This document shows positions 2,164 to 54,781 of a DNA stretch of 64,000 bases, piece by piece. The position numbers and the translations under genes were made by a program. The DNA is from Rathayibacter agropyri. GTDB lineage: Bacteria > Actinomycetota > Actinomycetes > Actinomycetales > Microbacteriaceae. The notes under the pieces were generated by a model that worked only from the letters and a program-made list of their open reading frames with translations, searched no databases and had not been told where the DNA came from. The DNA is taken from contig NZ_JABRPL010000002.1 of the NCBI RefSeq assembly GCF_013249015.1, forward strand, positions 310,001 to 374,000. Direction: 5' to 3'. Positions within the stretch are counted from its first letter, which is position 1. Each line of letters begins with the position of its first letter.

Positions 2164-3408
2164 ATGACCTCTCCGATCGCCGCACCGCCGCGGCGTCCGG
2201 CCGATATCTCTCTTCTGCGCCTCCTCGGCCCCGCGATGGTCGCCGGGGTCGCCTATCTCGATCCGGGAAACGTCGCCAGCAATATGACGGCCGGCGCCCG
2301 CTTCGGCTACCTGCTGGTCTGGGTCGTCGTGCTCGGCAACCTGATGGCGTGGCTCATCCAGTACCTCTCGGCGAAGCTCGGCCTGATGACCGGCCGCAGC
2401 CTGCCCGAACTGCTCGGCGACCGCCTCCGCGGGCGCTGGGGGCGCCGGGCCTACTGGCTCCAGGCCGAGACCGTGGCGATGGCGACCGACCTCGCCGAGG
2501 TGATCGGCGGAGCGATCGCCCTCCACCTGCTCTTTGGACTGCCGCTGCTGGCCGGTGGGCTCGTGACCGGCGCCGTGTCGCTGGTGCTGCTGCTCGTGCA
2601 GACCCGGGGCGGCGCTCAGCCGTTCGAGCGCGTCATCACGGGGCTGATGGTGCTGATCGCTGTCGGTTTCACGGTGGGAGTGGTCGTCGATCCGCCGGAC
2701 GTCGGAGCCACGGTTACCGGGCTTGTCCCGCGCTTGGAGGGCTCGGAGTCGGTGCTGCTGGCCGCGTCGATCCTCGGCGCCACCGTCATGCCGCACGCCA
2801 TCTACGCTCACTCGGCCCTCGCCCGCGACCGCTTCGGCCATGTCGAGGGCGCGGGTGCCCGGCGGAGGATCCTCATCGCCACCCGAATCGACGTCACCAT
2901 CGCGCTCGCCATCGCCGGGACCGTGAACCTCGCGATCCTGCTCCTCGCCGCGCACTCGCTCTCAGGAGTCGCCGGGACCGACAGCCTCGAGGGGGCACAC
3001 GCCGCGATCGGGGCGGCGCTTGGACCGGTGGTCGCGACGCTGTTCGCGGTCGGCCTGCTCGCCTCCGGCCTGGCCTCGACCTCGGTCGGCGCCTATGCGG
3101 GAGCGGAGATCATGCACGGACTGCTCCACGTGCGCGTGCCGCTCGTCGCGCGCCGGCTGGTAACGCTGATCCCGGCGCTGCTGGTACTGGCCATCGGTTG
3201 TGACCCGACGCGCGCGCTGGTGCTGAGTCAAGTGGTGCTCTCGTTCGGCATTCCGTTCGCGCTGGTGCCGCTGGTGGTCCTCACTCGGGATCGGGGCCTG
3301 ATGGGCGATCAGACAAATCGGTGGTTCACGACCCTCGGAGCCGCGCTCGCGGCGGTGTTCCTCATCGTGCTCAACGGGTTGCTGCTGTGGCTCACCTTCG
3401 CGGGCTGA
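2164..3408 (+). CDS. mntH: Nramp family divalent metal transporter
   Basis: Proton-coupled Mn(II)/Fe(II) importer of the inner membrane. The 414-residue protein carries the two signature metal-binding motifs: DPGN at residues 33-36 in the first membrane helix and MPH at about 209-211 in helix 6 (ATVMPHAIYAHSAL), with about 11 hydrophobic segments in all. Length is typical. The ATG at 2164 lacks a strong Shine-Dalgarno sequence. The gene diverges from cbs and is followed, after 127 nt, by the DUF3105/DUF305 pair; a shared metal-related role is possible but not shown by the sequence. No clear MntR or DtxR operator was recognised. Confidence 0.93.
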   Translation: MTSPIAAPPRRPADISLLRLLGPAMVAGVAYLDPGNVASNMTAGARFGYLLVWVVVLGNLMAWLIQYLSAKLGLMTGRSLPELLGDRLRGRWGRRAYWLQAETVAMATDLAEVIGGAIALHLLFGLPLLAGGLVTGAVSLVLLLVQTRGGAQPFERVITGLMVLIAVGFTVGVVVDPPDVGATVTGLVPRLEGSESVLLAASILGATVMPHAIYAHSALARDRFGHVEGAGARRRILIATRIDVTIALAIAGTVNLAILLLAAHSLSGVAGTDSLEGAHAAIGAALGPVVATLFAVGLLASGLASTSVGAYAGAEIMHGLLHVRVPLVARRLVTLIPALLVLAIGCDPTRALVLSQVVLSFGIPFALVPLVVLTRDRGLMGDQTNRWFTTLGAALAAVFLIVLNGLLLWLTFAG

Positions 3409-49146: not shown

Positions 49147-49176
49147 TTGGCCGCTCACCAACGCGTCCCCTAGACT
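49147..49176 (+). promoter_or_regulatory. Promoter of the anthranilate synthase leader
   Basis: TTGGCC (49147-49152) and TAGACT (49171-49176) are 18 nt apart. The -10 box ends 6 nt before GTG 49183 of the leader peptide, so the transcript probably starts at the leader start codon. Confidence 0.65.
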
Positions 49177-49182
49177 CCCTCC

Positions 49183-49224
49183 GTGCCCGCGCCGATCATC
49201 AGCCCCTGGTGGCCCGCCTCGTAG
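49183..49224 (+). CDS. trpL: Trp attenuator leader peptide
   Basis: A 13-codon frame from GTG 49183 to TAG 49222-49224 encodes VPAPIISPWWPAS, with two adjacent Trp codons (49207-49212). It sits behind a plausible promoter and is followed by alternative hairpins and a terminator before the anthranilate synthase gene. Trp-Trp(-Trp) leader peptides in front of trpE are known from corynebacteria and streptomycetes (family knowledge); this one has no ribosome site and would be translated as a leaderless start. Confidence 0.82.
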   Translation: MPAPIISPWWPAS

Positions 49225-49253
49225 GCGGACCGACGCGCGCAGACTCTCGCACT

Positions 49254-49276
49254 CGACCGCCTCCTCCGGGCGGTCG
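49254..49276 (+). terminator. Attenuator terminator before anthranilate synthase gene
   Basis: CGACCGCC (49254-49261) pairs with GGCGGTCG (49269-49276), 8 bp with a 7-nt loop, followed by the T-rich TTCTGCTTGT. The left arm overlaps CCGCCT (49257-49262), which can instead pair with AGGCGG (49223-49228); that in turn can pair with CCGCCT at 49214-49219. These are the competing structures expected for attenuation. Confidence 0.75.
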
Positions 49277-49322
49277 TTCTGCTTGTCAGAGCCCGGGTGG
49301 GGCACGACCCTCAAGGACCACG

Positions 49323-51203
49323 ATGACCTCGCTCCTCTCCCGCATCCTCACCTCCGACGGCTCGCTGCCGTTCGCAGTCGTCCTCCGTCAGGACCACTCA
49401 GAGGTCGACGTGTTCACCGGTGACGTCCTCGACGTCCAGGGCCTGGCCGACATCCCCCTCGACGGCGCCGACGTGCTGACCCTGGTTCCCTACCGGCAGG
49501 TGCGAGAGCGCGGCTTCGCGGCGAAGGACGATGGGGCGCCACTGCGCAACCTCGTCGTCCGTGAGCGTGAGAGCGTGCCGCTGGCGGAAGTACTGCGCCT
49601 TTTGCCCGAACGCGAAATCCCCGTGGAGGAGCGCGGCTTCGACGTGCCGGACGATGAGTACGCCGACATTGTCCGCCACGTGATTGACGAGGAAATCGGC
49701 AGAGGCCAGGGCGCGAACTTCGTGATCAGCCGTGCCTTCGTCGCGCAGACCGACGCTCCCCCGGTGGCAGCGGTGCTCGCCTGGTTCCGCAGGCTGCTGA
49801 CCGACGAGTCGGGCGCCTACTGGACCTTTGCCATCCACACCCCAGGCTCCGATGGCTCCCCCACCGTCACCGCGGTCGGGGCGACACCCGAGCGTCACGT
49901 CTCGGTGCGCGATGGGGTCGCCATGATGAACCCGATCAGCGGCACCTTCCGCCACCCAGCCGCCGGACCGACCGGCGAAGAGGTACTCGCGTTCCTCGCA
50001 GATGTGAAGGAGAGCGAGGAACTCTTCATGGTGGTGGATGAGGAGATGAAGATGATGAGCGCGGTCTGCCCTGCCGGTGGCCGCATCCTCGGGCCGTTCC
50101 TCAAGCAGATGTCGCGCCTCAGCCACACGGAGTACCTGCTCGAGGGGTGCACAGATCTCGACGTCCGGGAGGTCCTGCGCCTGACGATGTTCGCGCCGAC
50201 CGTCACCGGCTCGCCAATGGAGAATGCCTGCGCCGTGATCGCAGAGTATGAGAAGGAGCCACGCGGCTACTACTCCGGCGTGCTCGCGCTCTTCGAGCCG
50301 CAGGAAAGTGGATACACGGTCGACGCGCCCATCCTCATCCGCACCGCCTATCTCCGCCCCGACGGCAGGCTCACCGTGCCGGCCGGCGCAACTCTGGTGC
50401 GCCACTCCACCCCCGACGGTGAGGTCGCCGAGACGCGCGCCAAGGCCTCCGGCGTGCTGTCCGCCCTGGGGCTGCTGCCGCACCGCGACGTGCCGCCGGC
50501 GATCGACCTCAATGCGCAACCGGGTGTTCAGGAGGCGCTCGAAGCGCGTAACGAGCGGCTCGCGTCGTTCTGGCTGCGGCCGCAGGCTTCGGAGCACATC
50601 GTGGGGCTGGCCGGGCACACTGCGCTCATCGTGGACAACGAAGACCAGTTCACGACGATGCTCGCGCACCAGCTACGGCACCTCGGCATGGATGCCCGGG
50701 TCGAGCGCTGGTCACAGGTCGACGACGTGCTGAGCGATGACCTCGTCGTCTTCGGCCCCGGCCCCGGCGACCCGCGCGACGACTCCGAGCCGCGGATCGC
50801 GCGCCTGCGCGAGCTGATGACCGCGCGCCTCGACTCGAAGCGTCCGCTGCTCGCCGTCTGCCTCAGCCACCAGATGCTGTCACTGCTGGCCGGCCTGGCG
50901 GTCGAGCCCCTGCCTGCTCCGCGCCAGGGTGTGCGAATGGCCGTCGATGTGTTCGGCGAGGATGCGGCCATCGGCTTCTACAACACCTTTTCCTCACTCG
51001 CTCCAGGCGGTGAGCGCACGCCACAACTCGGGCTCGAGGTCTCGGTCGATCCCCTGACAGGAGTGGTGAACGCCCTGCGCGGCGAGCACGTCGCGTCGGT
51101 GCAGGGACATCTGGAGTCGGTGCTCTCCTCCGACGGTCTGCGCACCCTCGAGCGGCTCGTGCGTCTCGCGACCGCGCAGCCTACCCGCGCGTGCCCCGTC
51201 TGA
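49323..51203 (+). CDS. Fused anthranilate synthase (TrpE-TrpG type, PhzE-like)
   Basis: A 626-residue chorismate-using enzyme with glutamine amidotransferase fused at its C terminus. Residues about 1-420 form the chorismate-binding domain (GQGANFVISRAFVAQ, GATPERHVSVRDGVAMMNPI, EELFMVVDEEMKMMSAVC, SHTEYLLEGCTDLDVREVL); residues about 435-626 form the class I amidotransferase with the catalytic Cys in LLAVCLSHQML (about 512) and His-Glu in VQGHLES (about 593). The arrangement is like PhzE, but no phenazine gene is nearby, and the Trp leader and attenuator upstream indicate that it feeds tryptophan synthesis. AAGGA lies 5 nt before ATG 49323. Confidence 0.9.
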   Translation: MTSLLSRILTSDGSLPFAVVLRQDHSEVDVFTGDVLDVQGLADIPLDGADVLTLVPYRQVRERGFAAKDDGAPLRNLVVRERESVPLAEVLRLLPEREIPVEERGFDVPDDEYADIVRHVIDEEIGRGQGANFVISRAFVAQTDAPPVAAVLAWFRRLLTDESGAYWTFAIHTPGSDGSPTVTAVGATPERHVSVRDGVAMMNPISGTFRHPAAGPTGEEVLAFLADVKESEELFMVVDEEMKMMSAVCPAGGRILGPFLKQMSRLSHTEYLLEGCTDLDVREVLRLTMFAPTVTGSPMENACAVIAEYEKEPRGYYSGVLALFEPQESGYTVDAPILIRTAYLRPDGRLTVPAGATLVRHSTPDGEVAETRAKASGVLSALGLLPHRDVPPAIDLNAQPGVQEALEARNERLASFWLRPQASEHIVGLAGHTALIVDNEDQFTTMLAHQLRHLGMDARVERWSQVDDVLSDDLVVFGPGPGDPRDDSEPRIARLRELMTARLDSKRPLLAVCLSHQMLSLLAGLAVEPLPAPRQGVRMAVDVFGEDAAIGFYNTFSSLAPGGERTPQLGLEVSVDPLTGVVNALRGEHVASVQGHLESVLSSDGLRTLERLVRLATAQPTRACPV

Positions 51204-51294: not shown

Positions 51295-52194
51295 ATGACC
51301 TCGACCCTCCTCGCCGTCCAGGCGACCGCCCTCACCAAAAGCTTCGGCTCCGTCGCCGCCGTCGTCGGCGTGGACCTCACGGTCCGCCCGGGCGAGATCG
51401 TCGCCTTCCTCGGCCCCAATGGCGCGGGCAAGACGACGACCATCGACATGCTCCTGGGGCTCTCGACACCGGACACCGGCGAGGTGCGCGTCTTCGGGCG
51501 CCCGCCCCGGACCGCCGTTGCGCACGGACTGGTCTCAGCCGTCCTGCAGACGGGCGGGTTGCTCACAGACCTCACCGCGCGCGAGACGCTCGAGCTGACC
51601 GCGAGTCTCTTCGCCGAAACCCGCGCGGTCGACGAGGTGCTCGAGCGGGCTGGCATCCGTGAGATTGCCGACCGGCGGGTGGGCCTGTGCTCCGGTGGTC
51701 AGCAGCAGCGACTCCGGTTCGCGATGGCGCTGCTCTCGGACCCCGGGCTGCTCCTCCTCGACGAGCCGACGACCGGGATGGACGTCGAGGGCCGCCGCGC
51801 CTTCTGGGGCGCCATCCGCGCCGATGCCGAGCGAGGCCGCACGGTCCTCTTCGCGACGCACTACCTCGAGGAGGCCGACGAGTACGCCGACCGGATCGTC
51901 CTGATGAGCCGCGGCCAGATCGTCGCTGACGGCACGACCAGCGCCATCAAGAACGTCGTCTCGGGGCGCATCGTCCGCGCCACCCTTCCGGGCGCCGACC
52001 TTGCCGCACTGGCCGGCCTCCCCCGGGTCTCGAGCGTCGACGCGAAGGGTGACCGGATCGCGGTGCACACCGACGACTCCGACGCCCTCGCCCGGCACCT
52101 GCTCACCCGGACCGACGCCCGCGACGTCGAGATCACCGCTCAGACCCTCGAGAACGTTTTCCTCGCCCTCACCTCCGAAGGAGCCTCCGCATGA
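51295..52194 (+). CDS. ABC-2 exporter ATP-binding protein
   Basis: A 299-residue ATPase: Walker A GPNGAGKTTTIDMLLGLS, signature LCSGGQQQRLRFAMAL (Cys replaces the usual Ser before Gly), Walker B LLLLDEPTTGMDVEGRRAFW, and switch His in LFATHYLEEADEYADR, followed by a C-terminal domain of the drug-exporter type. It is coupled to the permease gene by a 4-nt overlap. CAGGCT 6 nt before ATG 51295 may be a leaderless -10 variant. Confidence 0.94.
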   Translation: MTSTLLAVQATALTKSFGSVAAVVGVDLTVRPGEIVAFLGPNGAGKTTTIDMLLGLSTPDTGEVRVFGRPPRTAVAHGLVSAVLQTGGLLTDLTARETLELTASLFAETRAVDEVLERAGIREIADRRVGLCSGGQQQRLRFAMALLSDPGLLLLDEPTTGMDVEGRRAFWGAIRADAERGRTVLFATHYLEEADEYADRIVLMSRGQIVADGTTSAIKNVVSGRIVRATLPGADLAALAGLPRVSSVDAKGDRIAVHTDDSDALARHLLTRTDARDVEITAQTLENVFLALTSEGASA

Positions 52195-53009
52195 CCAGCA
52201 CAGCCCCCATTGCGGATCGCGTCCGCCTCGACCGCCGCTCCTCGGCGCTCGGCGGCTTCACCATCACCTACCTCCGCATCGAGATCCTGCGGCGGACGCG
52301 GAACCGGCGGACGCTCTTTTTCACTCTGCTCTTCCCCGTCCTGATGTTCTTCATCGTCGGCTACCCACGCCTCGACGACGCGTTGACCGCGACCCCGGTC
52401 TCCGAGGGGGGCGTGTCGATTGCCGCCTTCATCATGGTGTCCATGGCGATGTACGGCGCGATGATGTCGGCGACGCAGACGGGCGCCGCCGTCGCGGTCG
52501 AGCGCGCCCAGGGCTGGAGCCGGCAGCTTCGGCTCACTCCGCTGAACCCGGTCGTGAACGTTCTCATCAAGATGATCGCCGGAATGGTTCTCGGCGCGCT
52601 CGCCGTCGTCGCCACCTACGTCGTCGGGGCGCTCAGCGGCATCGAGCTCTCGCCCGTGCAGTGGATGGCGACCGGAGTGACGGGCTGGCTGCTCGCGAGC
52701 GCCACCTTCACCACGCTCGGCCTGATGGTCGGCTACCTCGTGCCGGGCGAGAACGCGGCGCAGATCACGAGCCTTTTGATCGTGGTACTCGCGTTTCTCG
52801 GCGGGCTCTTCTACCCGGTGAGTAACATGCCTGACGTCCTACGAACCCTCGCCACCTTCACTCCGGTGTACGGCATCGCCGAGCTCGCCCGCGCGCCGCT
52901 GACGGGCGAGGGCTTTGACGTCGGCGCCCTCGTGAACGTGCTCGTCTGGCTGGGCGTCTTCCTGACCGGGACCGTCGTCGTCTTTCGCCGAGACACCGGG
53001 CGGGTGTGA
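52191..53009 (+). CDS. ABC-2 type permease
   Basis: A 272-residue integral membrane protein with six helices of the ABC-2 fold: RTRNRRTLFFTLLFPVLMFF at the first helix, MYGAMMSATQTGAAVAVERA with QGWSRQLRLTPLNP after it, and FLGGLFYPVSNMPDVLRTLA near the end. It pairs with the preceding ATPase; substrate (antibiotic, lipid or peptide) unknown. The DesK/DesR-like two-component system 42 nt downstream likely regulates this exporter, as is common for such four-gene sets. Confidence 0.93.
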   Translation: MTSTAPIADRVRLDRRSSALGGFTITYLRIEILRRTRNRRTLFFTLLFPVLMFFIVGYPRLDDALTATPVSEGGVSIAAFIMVSMAMYGAMMSATQTGAAVAVERAQGWSRQLRLTPLNPVVNVLIKMIAGMVLGALAVVATYVVGALSGIELSPVQWMATGVTGWLLASATFTTLGLMVGYLVPGENAAQITSLLIVVLAFLGGLFYPVSNMPDVLRTLATFTPVYGIAELARAPLTGEGFDVGALVNVLVWLGVFLTGTVVVFRRDTGRV

Positions 53010-53051
53010 CAGCTGCGGGAAGACCGGTCTTCCCGCCCCTAAAGTGAGCGC

Positions 53052-54167
53052 GTGAGCAGCACGAGCATGGCGCCGCACGGCGAGCGCGGTGCGCTTTGGA
53101 CGCCGCTCGCTCGGCGCTGGTACGTCGGCGCCGTCATCTCGCTCTTCTGGGTCTACTCGTCAGTTCTTGCGTCCCCGGAGTGGCCCGGCCGGGTCGCCGG
53201 CGTCGCCCTGATCGCCGGCTTCAGCGTCGCGTTCCTCGTTGCGCCGCCGATTGCCTGGACCGTGTCGACCCGTGGCCGGGCGCTGATCTGCGCCGGAATG
53301 CTCGCCCTCTCGCTCACGCTCCTCCCCTGGCTGGGCCGTGGCGTAACAGGTCTCTGGACCTATGTGGGCGTGGTCGCGGGACTGTGCCTGTTCTCGTGGT
53401 GGCTGACGCTGGGCATCATCGGGGCACTCACGCTCGTGGCGCTCGCCCTCCGCCTCGACGGCAGCCCAGGAACCGAGAGCACCGTCGTCGTGCCGGTGAT
53501 CATCTTCTCGATCTCCCTGATGATGGCCACCTTCGCCCGCACCATCGCCACCGTGAACCAGCTCCACGTGACCCGCGCCGAACTCGAGGTGCTGACTGCC
53601 GAGCGCGAGCGGAGCCGCGTCGCCCGTGACATCCACGACATCCTCGGGCACTCGCTCACGGTGATCACGGTGAAGTCGGAGCTGGCGGGGCGCGTCCTCA
53701 CCAGCGACCCTGCTCGCGCGCGGGCCGAGATTGCCGATGTGGAGTCCCTCGCGCGCGGCGCCCTTGCCGATCTCCGGGCCACCGTGTCGGGGTTCCGCGC
53801 GACGACCGCGAGCGGCGCGCTGGCCGCCGCCCGGGGTGCCCTGAGCGCCGCGGGGATCTCGGCCGATCTGCCCTCGTCCACCGACGCCGTCCTCTCGCAG
53901 CACCGGGAGCTGGCGGGCTGGGTGATCCGCGAGGGCGTCACCAACGTCATCCGCCACTCGGGCGCCTCGCACTGCCGCATCCGCCTCACGCCCTGCACGG
54001 TCGACGTCGCCGACGACGGCGTGGGCCCGCAGGACGGGACGGCGAGTTCGACCGGGCTCGCCGGGCTCCGCGAGCGGGTCGAGGCGGCGGGCGGACGCCT
54101 CTCCATCGGGACGAGCGACCTCGGCGGCTTCCGCCTGGCGGCGACGCTGCCCGGAGCCGGGCAATGA
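53052..54167 (+). CDS. NarL/DesK-type sensor histidine kinase
   Basis: A 371-residue kinase with about five membrane helices (35-175), then HisKA_3 (ERSRVARDIHDILGHSLTVI; phospho-His at about 195) and a compact ATPase domain (REGVTNVIRHSGASHCRIRL, DDGVGPQDG, GLAGLRERVEAAGGRL). GTG 53052 starts the frame. It overlaps its response-regulator gene by 4 nt and follows the ABC-2 pair. By analogy with DesK the membrane part may sense lipid or drug effects on the membrane; this is inference. Confidence 0.93.
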   Translation: MSSTSMAPHGERGALWTPLARRWYVGAVISLFWVYSSVLASPEWPGRVAGVALIAGFSVAFLVAPPIAWTVSTRGRALICAGMLALSLTLLPWLGRGVTGLWTYVGVVAGLCLFSWWLTLGIIGALTLVALALRLDGSPGTESTVVVPVIIFSISLMMATFARTIATVNQLHVTRAELEVLTAERERSRVARDIHDILGHSLTVITVKSELAGRVLTSDPARARAEIADVESLARGALADLRATVSGFRATTASGALAAARGALSAAGISADLPSSTDAVLSQHRELAGWVIREGVTNVIRHSGASHCRIRLTPCTVDVADDGVGPQDGTASSTGLAGLRERVEAAGGRLSIGTSDLGGFRLAATLPGAGQ

Positions 54168-54781
54168 GTGCCGCGCCGCTGCGCCTCCTGATCGCCGACG
54201 ACCAGGCGCTGGTGCGGGGCGCGCTCGCCGCGCTGCTCTCCCTGGAGCACGACATCACCGTGGTCGCCGAGGTGGGCCGCGGCGACGAAGTGGTCGCGGC
54301 GGCCCTCGCTTCGGCTCCCGACGTCGCACTCCTGGACATCGAGATGCCCGGCCTCGACGGAATCGCGGCCGCGGCCCTGCTCCGCGAGGCGCTGCCGTCC
54401 TGCCGCGTGCTGATCGTGACGACCTTCGGACGCCCCGGTTACCTCACCCGCGCAATGCAGGCCGGCGCGTCGGGCTTCGTCGTGAAGGACACTCCGTCAG
54501 CCCGGCTGGCCGACGCGGTGCAGAGGGTCGGGCAGGGGCTGCGGGTCGTCGATCCTGACCTCGCCGCGGAGTCACTGGCGCAGGGCGGCACTCCGCTCAC
54601 CGAGCGCGAGACCGACGTACTCGCCGCCGCGCGCACCGGCGGATCGATCGCCGAGCTAGCCAGGATGCTGCACCTCTCGCAGGGCACGGTCCGCAACCAT
54701 CTCTCGGCGGTCATCGGCAAGACCGGCGCCCGCAATCGGGCCGATGCGCTGCGCATCGTGGAACGAAACGGCTGGCTCTGA
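54164..54781 (+). CDS. LuxR/NarL-type response regulator
   Basis: A 205-residue regulator: receiver domain (LLIADDQALVRGALAALLSL; phospho-Asp in VALLDIEMPGLDG at about 58; switch Lys in GFVVKDTPSARL) and a C-terminal LuxR helix-turn-helix (LTERETDVLAAARTGGSIAE, HLSQGTVRNHLSAVIGKTGA). It is coupled to the preceding kinase and probably controls the ABC-2 genes upstream. Confidence 0.94.
   Translation: MSAAPLRLLIADDQALVRGALAALLSLEHDITVVAEVGRGDEVVAAALASAPDVALLDIEMPGLDGIAAAALLREALPSCRVLIVTTFGRPGYLTRAMQAGASGFVVKDTPSARLADAVQRVGQGLRVVDPDLAAESLAQGGTPLTERETDVLAAARTGGSIAELARMLHLSQGTVRNHLSAVIGKTGARNRADALRIVERNGWL

What the first reader, a model, noticed from the sequence alone, without database searches (positions are those of the whole stretch)
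49147..49322. Tryptophan attenuator with a leaderless WW leader peptide ahead of a PhzE-like fused anthranilate synthase
Seen: promoter TTGGCC-18-TAGACT, a 13-residue leader with tandem Trp codons, three mutually exclusive CCGCCT/AGGCGG pairings, an 8-bp terminator with a T-rich tail, then the gene. The design follows classical trp attenuation but the leader would start without a ribosome site. It also argues that this PhzE-like fusion serves tryptophan rather than phenazine synthesis. One caution: the pairing segment begins only 11 nt past the second Trp codon, so a stalled ribosome may cover part of it.
Basis: partly seen in the sequence, partly recalled or inferred. Interest (0 to 1): 0.7.

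Follow-up and report, generated by a model that had tools for sequence, protein, structure and literature searches.

The report
Leaderless tryptophan attenuator before anthranilate synthase
A short RNA switch appears to sense tryptophan supply by letting a ribosome read two tryptophan codons at the very start of the message before deciding whether the gene for the first tryptophan-making enzyme is copied; it is a good new example of a known type of switch.

Summary
The window comes from a Rathayibacter-like actinobacterium (94% protein identity to R. iranicus). A 13-residue WW leader (GTG 49183, stop 49222-49224) precedes four pairing segments, a 9-pair terminator and a fused chorismate enzyme. 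Of 65 related loci, 43 carry a WW leader. In 43 of 44 sequences (window included) a TANNNT box lies 6-7 nt before the leader's start codon, and none has a Shine-Dalgarno: the leaderless design is conserved. The terminator stem is paired in 38 of 38 rows and covaries. By geometry, a ribosome stalled at the first Trp codon covers segment 1 and frees segment 2. In Rathayibacter and Plantibacter no canonical TrpE was found while TrpC and TrpD families remain, which supports a tryptophan role for this PhzE-type enzyme. A Streptomyces homologue (48% identity) carries, but for one residue, the leader reported as leaderless in S. lividans; so this is kin of the known Streptomyces trpE attenuator. Verdict: new member of a known kind. 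Not shown: transcript start, starvation response, enzyme product.

The parts
49147..49152 (+). -35-like box TTGGCC
   Evidence: sequence; TTGGCC in 6 of 8 Rathayibacter loci and GTGGCC in the other 2
49171..49176 (+). -10 box TAGACT, 6 nt before the leader start codon
   Evidence: TANNNT 6-7 nt before the start in 43 of 44 sequences
49183..49224 (+). leaderless leader ORF (GTG), MPAPIISPWWPAS + stop TAG; inferred transcript 5' end at or next to 49183
49207..49212 (+). tandem Trp codons
   Evidence: TGGTGG in all 38 rows of A1; the rows were chosen for having WW
49214..49219 (+). segment 1 CCGCCT, pairs with segment 2
   Evidence: 1:2 helix, 89.4% of cells paired
49223..49228 (+). segment 2 AGGCGG, overlapping the stop codon; antiterminator 5' arm
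   Evidence: 2:3 helix, 95.6% of cells paired
49254..49262 (+). segment 3 CGACCGCCT: antiterminator 3' arm / terminator 5' arm
49268..49276 (+). segment 4 GGGCGGTCG: terminator 3' arm
   Evidence: 3:4 helix (8 pairs counted) paired in 304 of 304 cells, two covarying pairs
49277..49286 (+). T-rich tail TTCTGCTTGT
   Evidence: terminator scan
49313..49317 (+). AAGGA, Shine-Dalgarno-like site of the structural gene
   Evidence: sequence
49323..51203 (+). fused PhzE-type enzyme, inferred anthranilate synthase (chorismate-binding + glutaminase domains)
   Evidence: Pfam PF00425 and PF00117; PhzE 3r74 521.9 bits

Best explanation
This is a ribosome-mediated transcription attenuator that controls a fused anthranilate synthase of tryptophan synthesis. 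RNA polymerase starts at or next to the G of GTG 49183, and a ribosome loads directly on the 5' end. With enough charged tRNA-Trp the ribosome runs to the stop codon, which lies at the loop of the 1:2 hairpin, and covers segment 2; segments 3 and 4 then form the terminator. When Trp is scarce the ribosome stalls on the Trp codons and covers segment 1; segment 2 pairs with segment 3 before segment 4 is complete, and the gene is transcribed. Without translation, 1:2 and 3:4 form and transcription stops. Shown: sequence anatomy, conservation, covariation of the terminator, fixed -10-to-start spacing, no canonical TrpE found in close relatives, homology to a Streptomyces gene with a trpL leader. 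Inferred: transcript start, stalling, switching, and that the enzyme makes anthranilate.
For: WW leaders lie ahead of 43 of 65 relatives (L038's WW frame has no such layout and was dropped). TANNNT 6-7 nt before the start in 43 of 44, 3 further TANNNT at all other offsets of the 100 nt upstream together, no SD in 44, start-to-WW distance 18 to 30 nt. Terminator: 304 of 304 cells paired, 2 pairs with changes on both sides in 8 cells; 0 of 500 shuffles reach the cells paired, cells changed on both sides or covariation score. 2:3 is 95.6% paired. Footprint folds: RNA from 49223 to 49273, with six of the nine bases of segment 4 made, folds as 2:3 (-17.5 kcal/mol); RNA free from 49235 forms the terminator. 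No canonical TrpE in 8 of 8 Rathayibacter, 2 of 2 VKM Ac-2854/2855 and 4 of 4 Plantibacter genomes, while TrpD-family (PF00591) and TrpC-family (PF00218) matches are in 12 of 12 tested genomes, four of which are of these groups. S. phaeofaciens L108: leader MFAHSTQNWWWTAHPAAH before a gene 48% identical over 625 aligned positions, against S. lividans TrpL1 MFAHSTRNWWWTAHPAAH, reported as transcribed leaderless (PMC8079986, passages). The same element precedes a trpS-like gene in 3 of 198 genomes (one of the three confirmed by NCBIfam trpS).
Against: No transcript or expression data for this organism. In folds of the whole transcript with segment 2 free (from 49220 or 49223) the terminator still wins, so antitermination must be kinetic. 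Overall fold z is only -1.57. The 1:2 helix does no better than shuffles on any measure and 2:3 has no double changes. For the terminator, the number of pairs with double changes (48 of 500 shuffles as high) and of further pair types (52 of 500) are not outstanding, and a slide by +3 still pairs 74.3%. Four rows (L013, L014, L028, L061) have 1 T in the 11-nt tail. 28 of the 43 leader-bearing genomes also have a full-length canonical TrpE match. The best solved match is PhzE, and for PhzE-type enzymes the product cannot be told from sequence (PMC5958127, passages).
Confidence: 0.87

Rival explanations
1. The attenuator is real, but the enzyme makes ADIC for a phenazine-like or other secondary product and tryptophan acts only as a signal.
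For: Strongest solved relative is PhzE, 521.9 bits against 82.8 for the best TrpE; the TrpE models score far under their cut-offs. 28 of 43 leader-bearing genomes also hold a canonical TrpE. Lim6, a PhzE relative, makes mostly ADIC (PMC5958127, passages).
Against: No canonical TrpE found in Rathayibacter and Plantibacter, whose next hits tested score best as PabB in four genomes while TrpC- and TrpD-family genes remain; trpC, a trpB-like gene and trpA sit in a row in L101. No PhzA/B match in 12 of 12 genomes, but that search rang in no control genome and so shows little. A Streptomyces homologue has a trpL leader.
Confidence: 0.08
2. The leader RNA or peptide mainly works in trans, as rnTrpL/peTrpL of Sinorhizobium meliloti do, and attenuation is secondary.
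For: S. meliloti trpL is also leaderless before trpE(G), and both its RNA and peptide are reported to act in trans (PMC7298713, passages).
Against: The N-terminal part of the leader varies in sequence and length; the conserved end coincides with the pairing segments, so its conservation needs no peptide function. No target was sought here.
Confidence: 0.03
3. The leader controls the gene at translation or by some other route, not by termination of transcription.
For: Four Cellulomonas-type relatives lack a T-rich tail. For the leuA and ilvB leaders of S. coelicolor, mutation analysis did not fit strict attenuation (PMC1262725, section 3 part 1).
Against: -10 box locked to the start codon in 43 of 44; terminator paired in 38 of 38 rows with covariation; 98 nt lie between the leader stop and the gene, which has its own AAGGA.
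Confidence: 0.04

Closest known systems
Streptomyces trpE attenuator (S. venezuelae, Lin et al. 1998, not held, known from citations; S. lividans trpL1-trpE, PMC8079986, passages)
   Same: Leaderless Trp-codon leader, hairpins, single-gene anthranilate synthase. S. phaeofaciens L108 has the S. lividans leader but for one residue, before an enzyme 48% identical to the window's.
   Different: Two Trp codons instead of three; leader ends WWPAS-stop instead of WWWTAHPAAH-stop; here no canonical TrpE was found beside it in close relatives.
Sinorhizobium meliloti trpL-trpE(G) attenuator (PMC7298713, passages)
   Same: Transcript starts at the leader's start codon; leader precedes a fused trpE(G).
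   Different: Alphaproteobacterial; the window's enzyme does not reach the TrpE-clade3 family model (118.5 bits against a cut-off of 739.15).
Corynebacterium trp operon attenuators (PMC1262725, section 3 part 1)
   Same: Classical attenuation with repeated UGG codons and competing hairpins.
   Different: There ahead of trp operons; pairing core reported as gGCC-rGCy-GGCC, here CCGCC/GGCGG.
trpS attenuators (S. avermitilis trpS2, PMC1262725 section 3 part 1; S. lividans trpL2, PMC8079986 passages)
   Same: A WWPA leader with hairpins like the window's precedes a trpS-like gene in three genomes found here.
   Different: S. lividans trpL2 has a single Trp codon; the window's element precedes the synthase of the first Trp step, not a tRNA ligase.

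Membership tests
Ribosome-mediated Trp transcription attenuator | Short leader ORF with tandem Trp codons near its end | tested here: met
   also in 43 of 65 relatives
Ribosome-mediated Trp transcription attenuator | Intrinsic terminator between leader and gene | tested here: met
   tail poor in T in some relatives
Ribosome-mediated Trp transcription attenuator | Antiterminator that excludes the terminator, placed so that a stalled ribosome leaves it free | tested here: met
   geometry and folding only, no covariation in 2:3
Ribosome-mediated Trp transcription attenuator | Read-through rises on Trp starvation and depends on the Trp codons | not testable with these tools
   needs experiment
Leaderless leader mRNA | -10 box 6-7 nt before the start codon and no Shine-Dalgarno | tested here: met
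   43 of 44; 0 of 44 with SD
Leaderless leader mRNA | Mapped 5' end at the start codon | not testable with these tools
   reported for S. lividans trpL1 (PMC8079986, passages)
PhzE-type fused chorismate enzyme | Chorismate-binding domain followed by glutaminase, near full-length similarity to PhzE | tested here: met
   (residues 24-616 of 626 matched)
TrpE-clade3 / PRK13566 fused anthranilate synthase | Score over the curated cut-off | tested here: not met
   118.5 of 739.15 and 136.8 of 645 bits
Anthranilate synthase (activity) | Makes anthranilate, not ADIC | not testable with these tools
   supported indirectly: no canonical TrpE found in close relatives

The most novel reading that the evidence does not exclude
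In Rathayibacter and Plantibacter a PhzE-type enzyme has taken over the first step of tryptophan synthesis from a lost canonical TrpE, and a leaderless attenuator is the main switch on that step. It belongs to an old actinobacterial element that also stands before trpS in some genomes and was lost in Ornithinimicrobium and kin, where the enzyme gene itself became leaderless.
Probability: 0.6. Interest if true: 0.42.

Novelty: new member of a known kind. Interest (0 to 1): 0.33.

Why it matters
It gives the likely function of a gene that a sequence search would call PhzE, offers wide comparative evidence that leaderless starts are a conserved design feature of actinobacterial Trp attenuators, and points to lineages where the PhzE-type fusion appears to be the only anthranilate synthase.

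Tried and rejected
Rfam at gathering thresholds finds only three tRNAs in the window and no Trp leader family. Thermodynamic folding alone is not decisive: z -1.57, and the full stalled transcript still favours the terminator. Covariation in 1:2 and 2:3 gave no support beyond pairing; these arms are shared between helices and can hardly vary. The PhzA/B search rang in no control genome, so it does not show absence. The R1 hit L100 (33.3 bits) precedes neither gene and is taken as chance. L105 and L107, fetched as possible fused TrpE copies, showed only weak similarity with the domains in the other order and were left aside. Paper searches for PhzE with Trp attenuation (2 papers, both by title on Pseudomonas aeruginosa) and for Rathayibacter anthranilate synthase (none) found no report of this locus; the library lacks most subscription journals. 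A 2015 paper on Trp attenuators in Actinobacteria, cited in PMC4833913, was not looked up.

Rows dropped before counts: L038 (WW frame without the layout); six duplicate rows before A1; L059 from the tree. Start codons were chosen by me where a leader had several in-frame starts. Genomes of L044 (not held), L059, L062, L064 and L065 (not submitted) are outside the TrpE counts.

Full report
What is there. The -10 box TAGACT (49171-49176) ends 6 nt before GTG 49183, which opens a 13-residue frame with TGG TGG at 49207-49212 and stop TAG at 49222-49224. The stop lies at the loop of a 6-bp hairpin (49214-49219 with 49223-49228) and shares AG with its 3' arm. A second stem, 49254-49262 with 49268-49276, has 9 pairs and a T-rich tail. 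The gene starts at ATG 49323, behind AAGGA and 98 nt after the leader's stop. Two small corrections: the stem has 9 pairs, and only the 2:3 pairing excludes the other two. The combined pattern is unique in the window and absent from 40 Markov-1 random windows.

The enzyme. The protein has a chorismate-binding domain and a C-terminal glutaminase domain. Its nearest solved relative is PhzE 3r74 with 521.9 bits; the best TrpE follows with 82.8. The 25 NCBIfam models shown (of 42 with E up to 0.001) all score far under their cut-offs. Pfam lists no Anth_synt_I_N domain in it; by recall that domain carries the Trp feedback site of TrpE, so weak feedback control is possible but not tested.

Relatives. 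One scan, which by design finds close relatives, gave 65 loci. A short frame with WW and the same layout lies upstream in 43 of them: Rathayibacter, Plantibacter, Gryllotalpicola, Frondihabitans, Arthrobacter, Cellulomonas, Cellulosimicrobium, Promicromonospora, Myceligenerans, Brevibacterium, Brachybacterium, one Streptomyces and several others, MAGs among them. 32 of the 44 leaders (window included) end in WWPAS or WWPAD before the stop. The other 22 loci are 17 of the Ornithinimicrobium/Serinicoccus/Kytococcus type, L059 (cut by the contig end), L060, L062, L064 and L065.

Leaderless start. In 43 of 44 sequences TANNNT ends 6 or 7 nt before the start codon; all other offsets of the 100 nt upstream together hold 3 such boxes, and no sequence has a Shine-Dalgarno motif at the usual place. 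The exception is L049. The start-to-WW distance varies between 18 and 30 nt, so the promoter box is locked to the start codon and not to the hairpins. This is what a conserved leaderless start predicts. It is not a mapped 5' end.

Pairing. On 38 distinct sequences (A1) the terminator is paired in 304 of 304 cells, with two pairs changed on both sides in 8 cells; 0 of 500 shuffles reach the cells paired, the cells changed on both sides or the covariation score, but 48 and 52 of 500 reach the number of such pairs and of further pair types. The antiterminator is paired in 95.6% of cells (15 of 500 shuffles as high) and shows no double changes. The 1:2 hairpin is paired in 89.4% of cells with one double change, no better than shuffles. 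The arms of 1, 2 and 3 constrain each other, so little covariation can be expected. The single-sequence fold energy is not exceptional (z -1.57).

With the second Trp codon in the A site and an edge 15 nt past the first P-site base (recalled toeprint rule), the ribosome ends at 49222, one base before segment 2. By the rule of about 12 nt after the translated codon (PMC4833913, section 4) it would reach 49224 and cover two of six bases. With the first Trp codon in the A site both rules (49219, 49221) cover segment 1 and leave segment 2 free. At the stop codon the edge is about 49234 and segment 2 is covered. RNA from 49223 to 49273, with six of the nine bases of segment 4 made, folds as 2:3 at -17.5 kcal/mol; RNA free from 49235 forms the terminator. 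When segment 4 and its tail are complete the terminator wins even with segment 2 free (same call), so antitermination must be kinetic.

Tryptophan rather than phenazine. Canonical TrpE (TIGR00564, a full-length match of 510 bits or more) was sought in 60 genomes of these loci. None was found in 8 of 8 Rathayibacter, 2 of 2 VKM Ac-2854/2855 and 4 of 4 Plantibacter genomes, nor in one Cellulomonas (L028). In four of these genomes the next best hit scores best as PabB, once over and three times just under the curated cut-off, and one further hit of R. iranicus is an isochorismate synthase. TrpD-family (PF00591, which also holds phosphorylases) and TrpC-family (PF00218) matches are present in 12 of 12 genomes tested, and in R. 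iranicus trpC, a trpB-like gene and trpA follow each other (L101). The PhzE-type enzyme is then the only candidate seen for the anthranilate step. Against this, 28 of the 43 leader-bearing genomes have both enzymes (18 of the 28 over the curated TrpE cut-off of 517.7 bits, 10 between 510 and it). PhzE relatives can make ADIC or anthranilate, and sequence does not tell which (PMC5958127, passages).

Link to the known system. In S. phaeofaciens a second copy (L108) has the leader MFAHSTQNWWWTAHPAAH with TAGGGT 7 nt before its ATG, and its enzyme is 48% identical to the window's over 625 aligned positions. S. lividans TrpL1, reported as transcribed leaderless before trpE, differs by one residue (PMC8079986, passages). 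Experimental work on trp attenuation in S. venezuelae and C. glutamicum is cited in PMC4833913 and PMC1262725 (passages and sections); the S. venezuelae paper itself is not held. That S. lividans trpE is the same gene as L108's is my inference from the leader.

Spread. A covariance model (R1) found the element in 23 of 198 genomes drawn from the order, with stricter filters that lose weak matches: 19 before a relative of this gene (one is R. iranicus itself; others may overlap the 43 loci), 3 before a trpS-like gene (L092 confirmed by NCBIfam, L093 and L094 by eye) and 1 chance hit. 18 of the 19 have a leader with TANNNT 5-8 nt before its start; L080 has CATAGT. On a tree of 66 proteins the leader label needs 3 changes, against a mean of 18 in shuffles, and the 17 leader-lacking Ornithinimicrobium-type rows form one clade. 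In 16 of these 17 the enzyme gene itself has a NANNNT box 6-7 nt before an ATG near its start (a looser box, and no control was run). Canonical TrpE was not found in 16 of 16 of their genomes searched; their other hits were not identified further.

Verdict. The kind of system is known; this is a well-supported new member, with a useful functional assignment and a clear conservation argument for the leaderless start.

Noticed in passing
17 loci of the Ornithinimicrobium/Serinicoccus/Kytococcus clade (L035-L040, L042-L048, L050, L052, L054, L056), around locus position 2980-3001: The attenuator is absent and the enzyme gene itself has a NANNNT box 6-7 nt before an ATG near its start in 16 of 17: the structural gene seems to have become leaderless (no control run).
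   Followed up: partly
L092, L093, L094, about position 1500 on the minus strand: A WWPA leader and hairpins like the window's precede a trpS-like gene; L092's is tryptophan--tRNA ligase by NCBIfam.
   Followed up: partly
L013, L014, L028, L061, after the terminator stem: Cellulomonas-type relatives keep leader and stem but have 1 T in the 11-nt tail, so release there may need another factor.
   Followed up: no
L002-L005, segment 2: AGGCAGG in place of AGGCGG breaks one pair in both 1:2 and 2:3 in part of Rathayibacter.
   Followed up: no
window 51295-54781: By eye, an ABC transporter ATPase, a permease, a sensor kinase and a response regulator follow the synthase on the same strand; no family search was made for them.
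   Followed up: no
L060, 3001-4854: S. phaeofaciens has another PhzE-type copy without a WW leader, grouping with a Nostoc protein; perhaps a secondary-metabolism enzyme.
   Followed up: no
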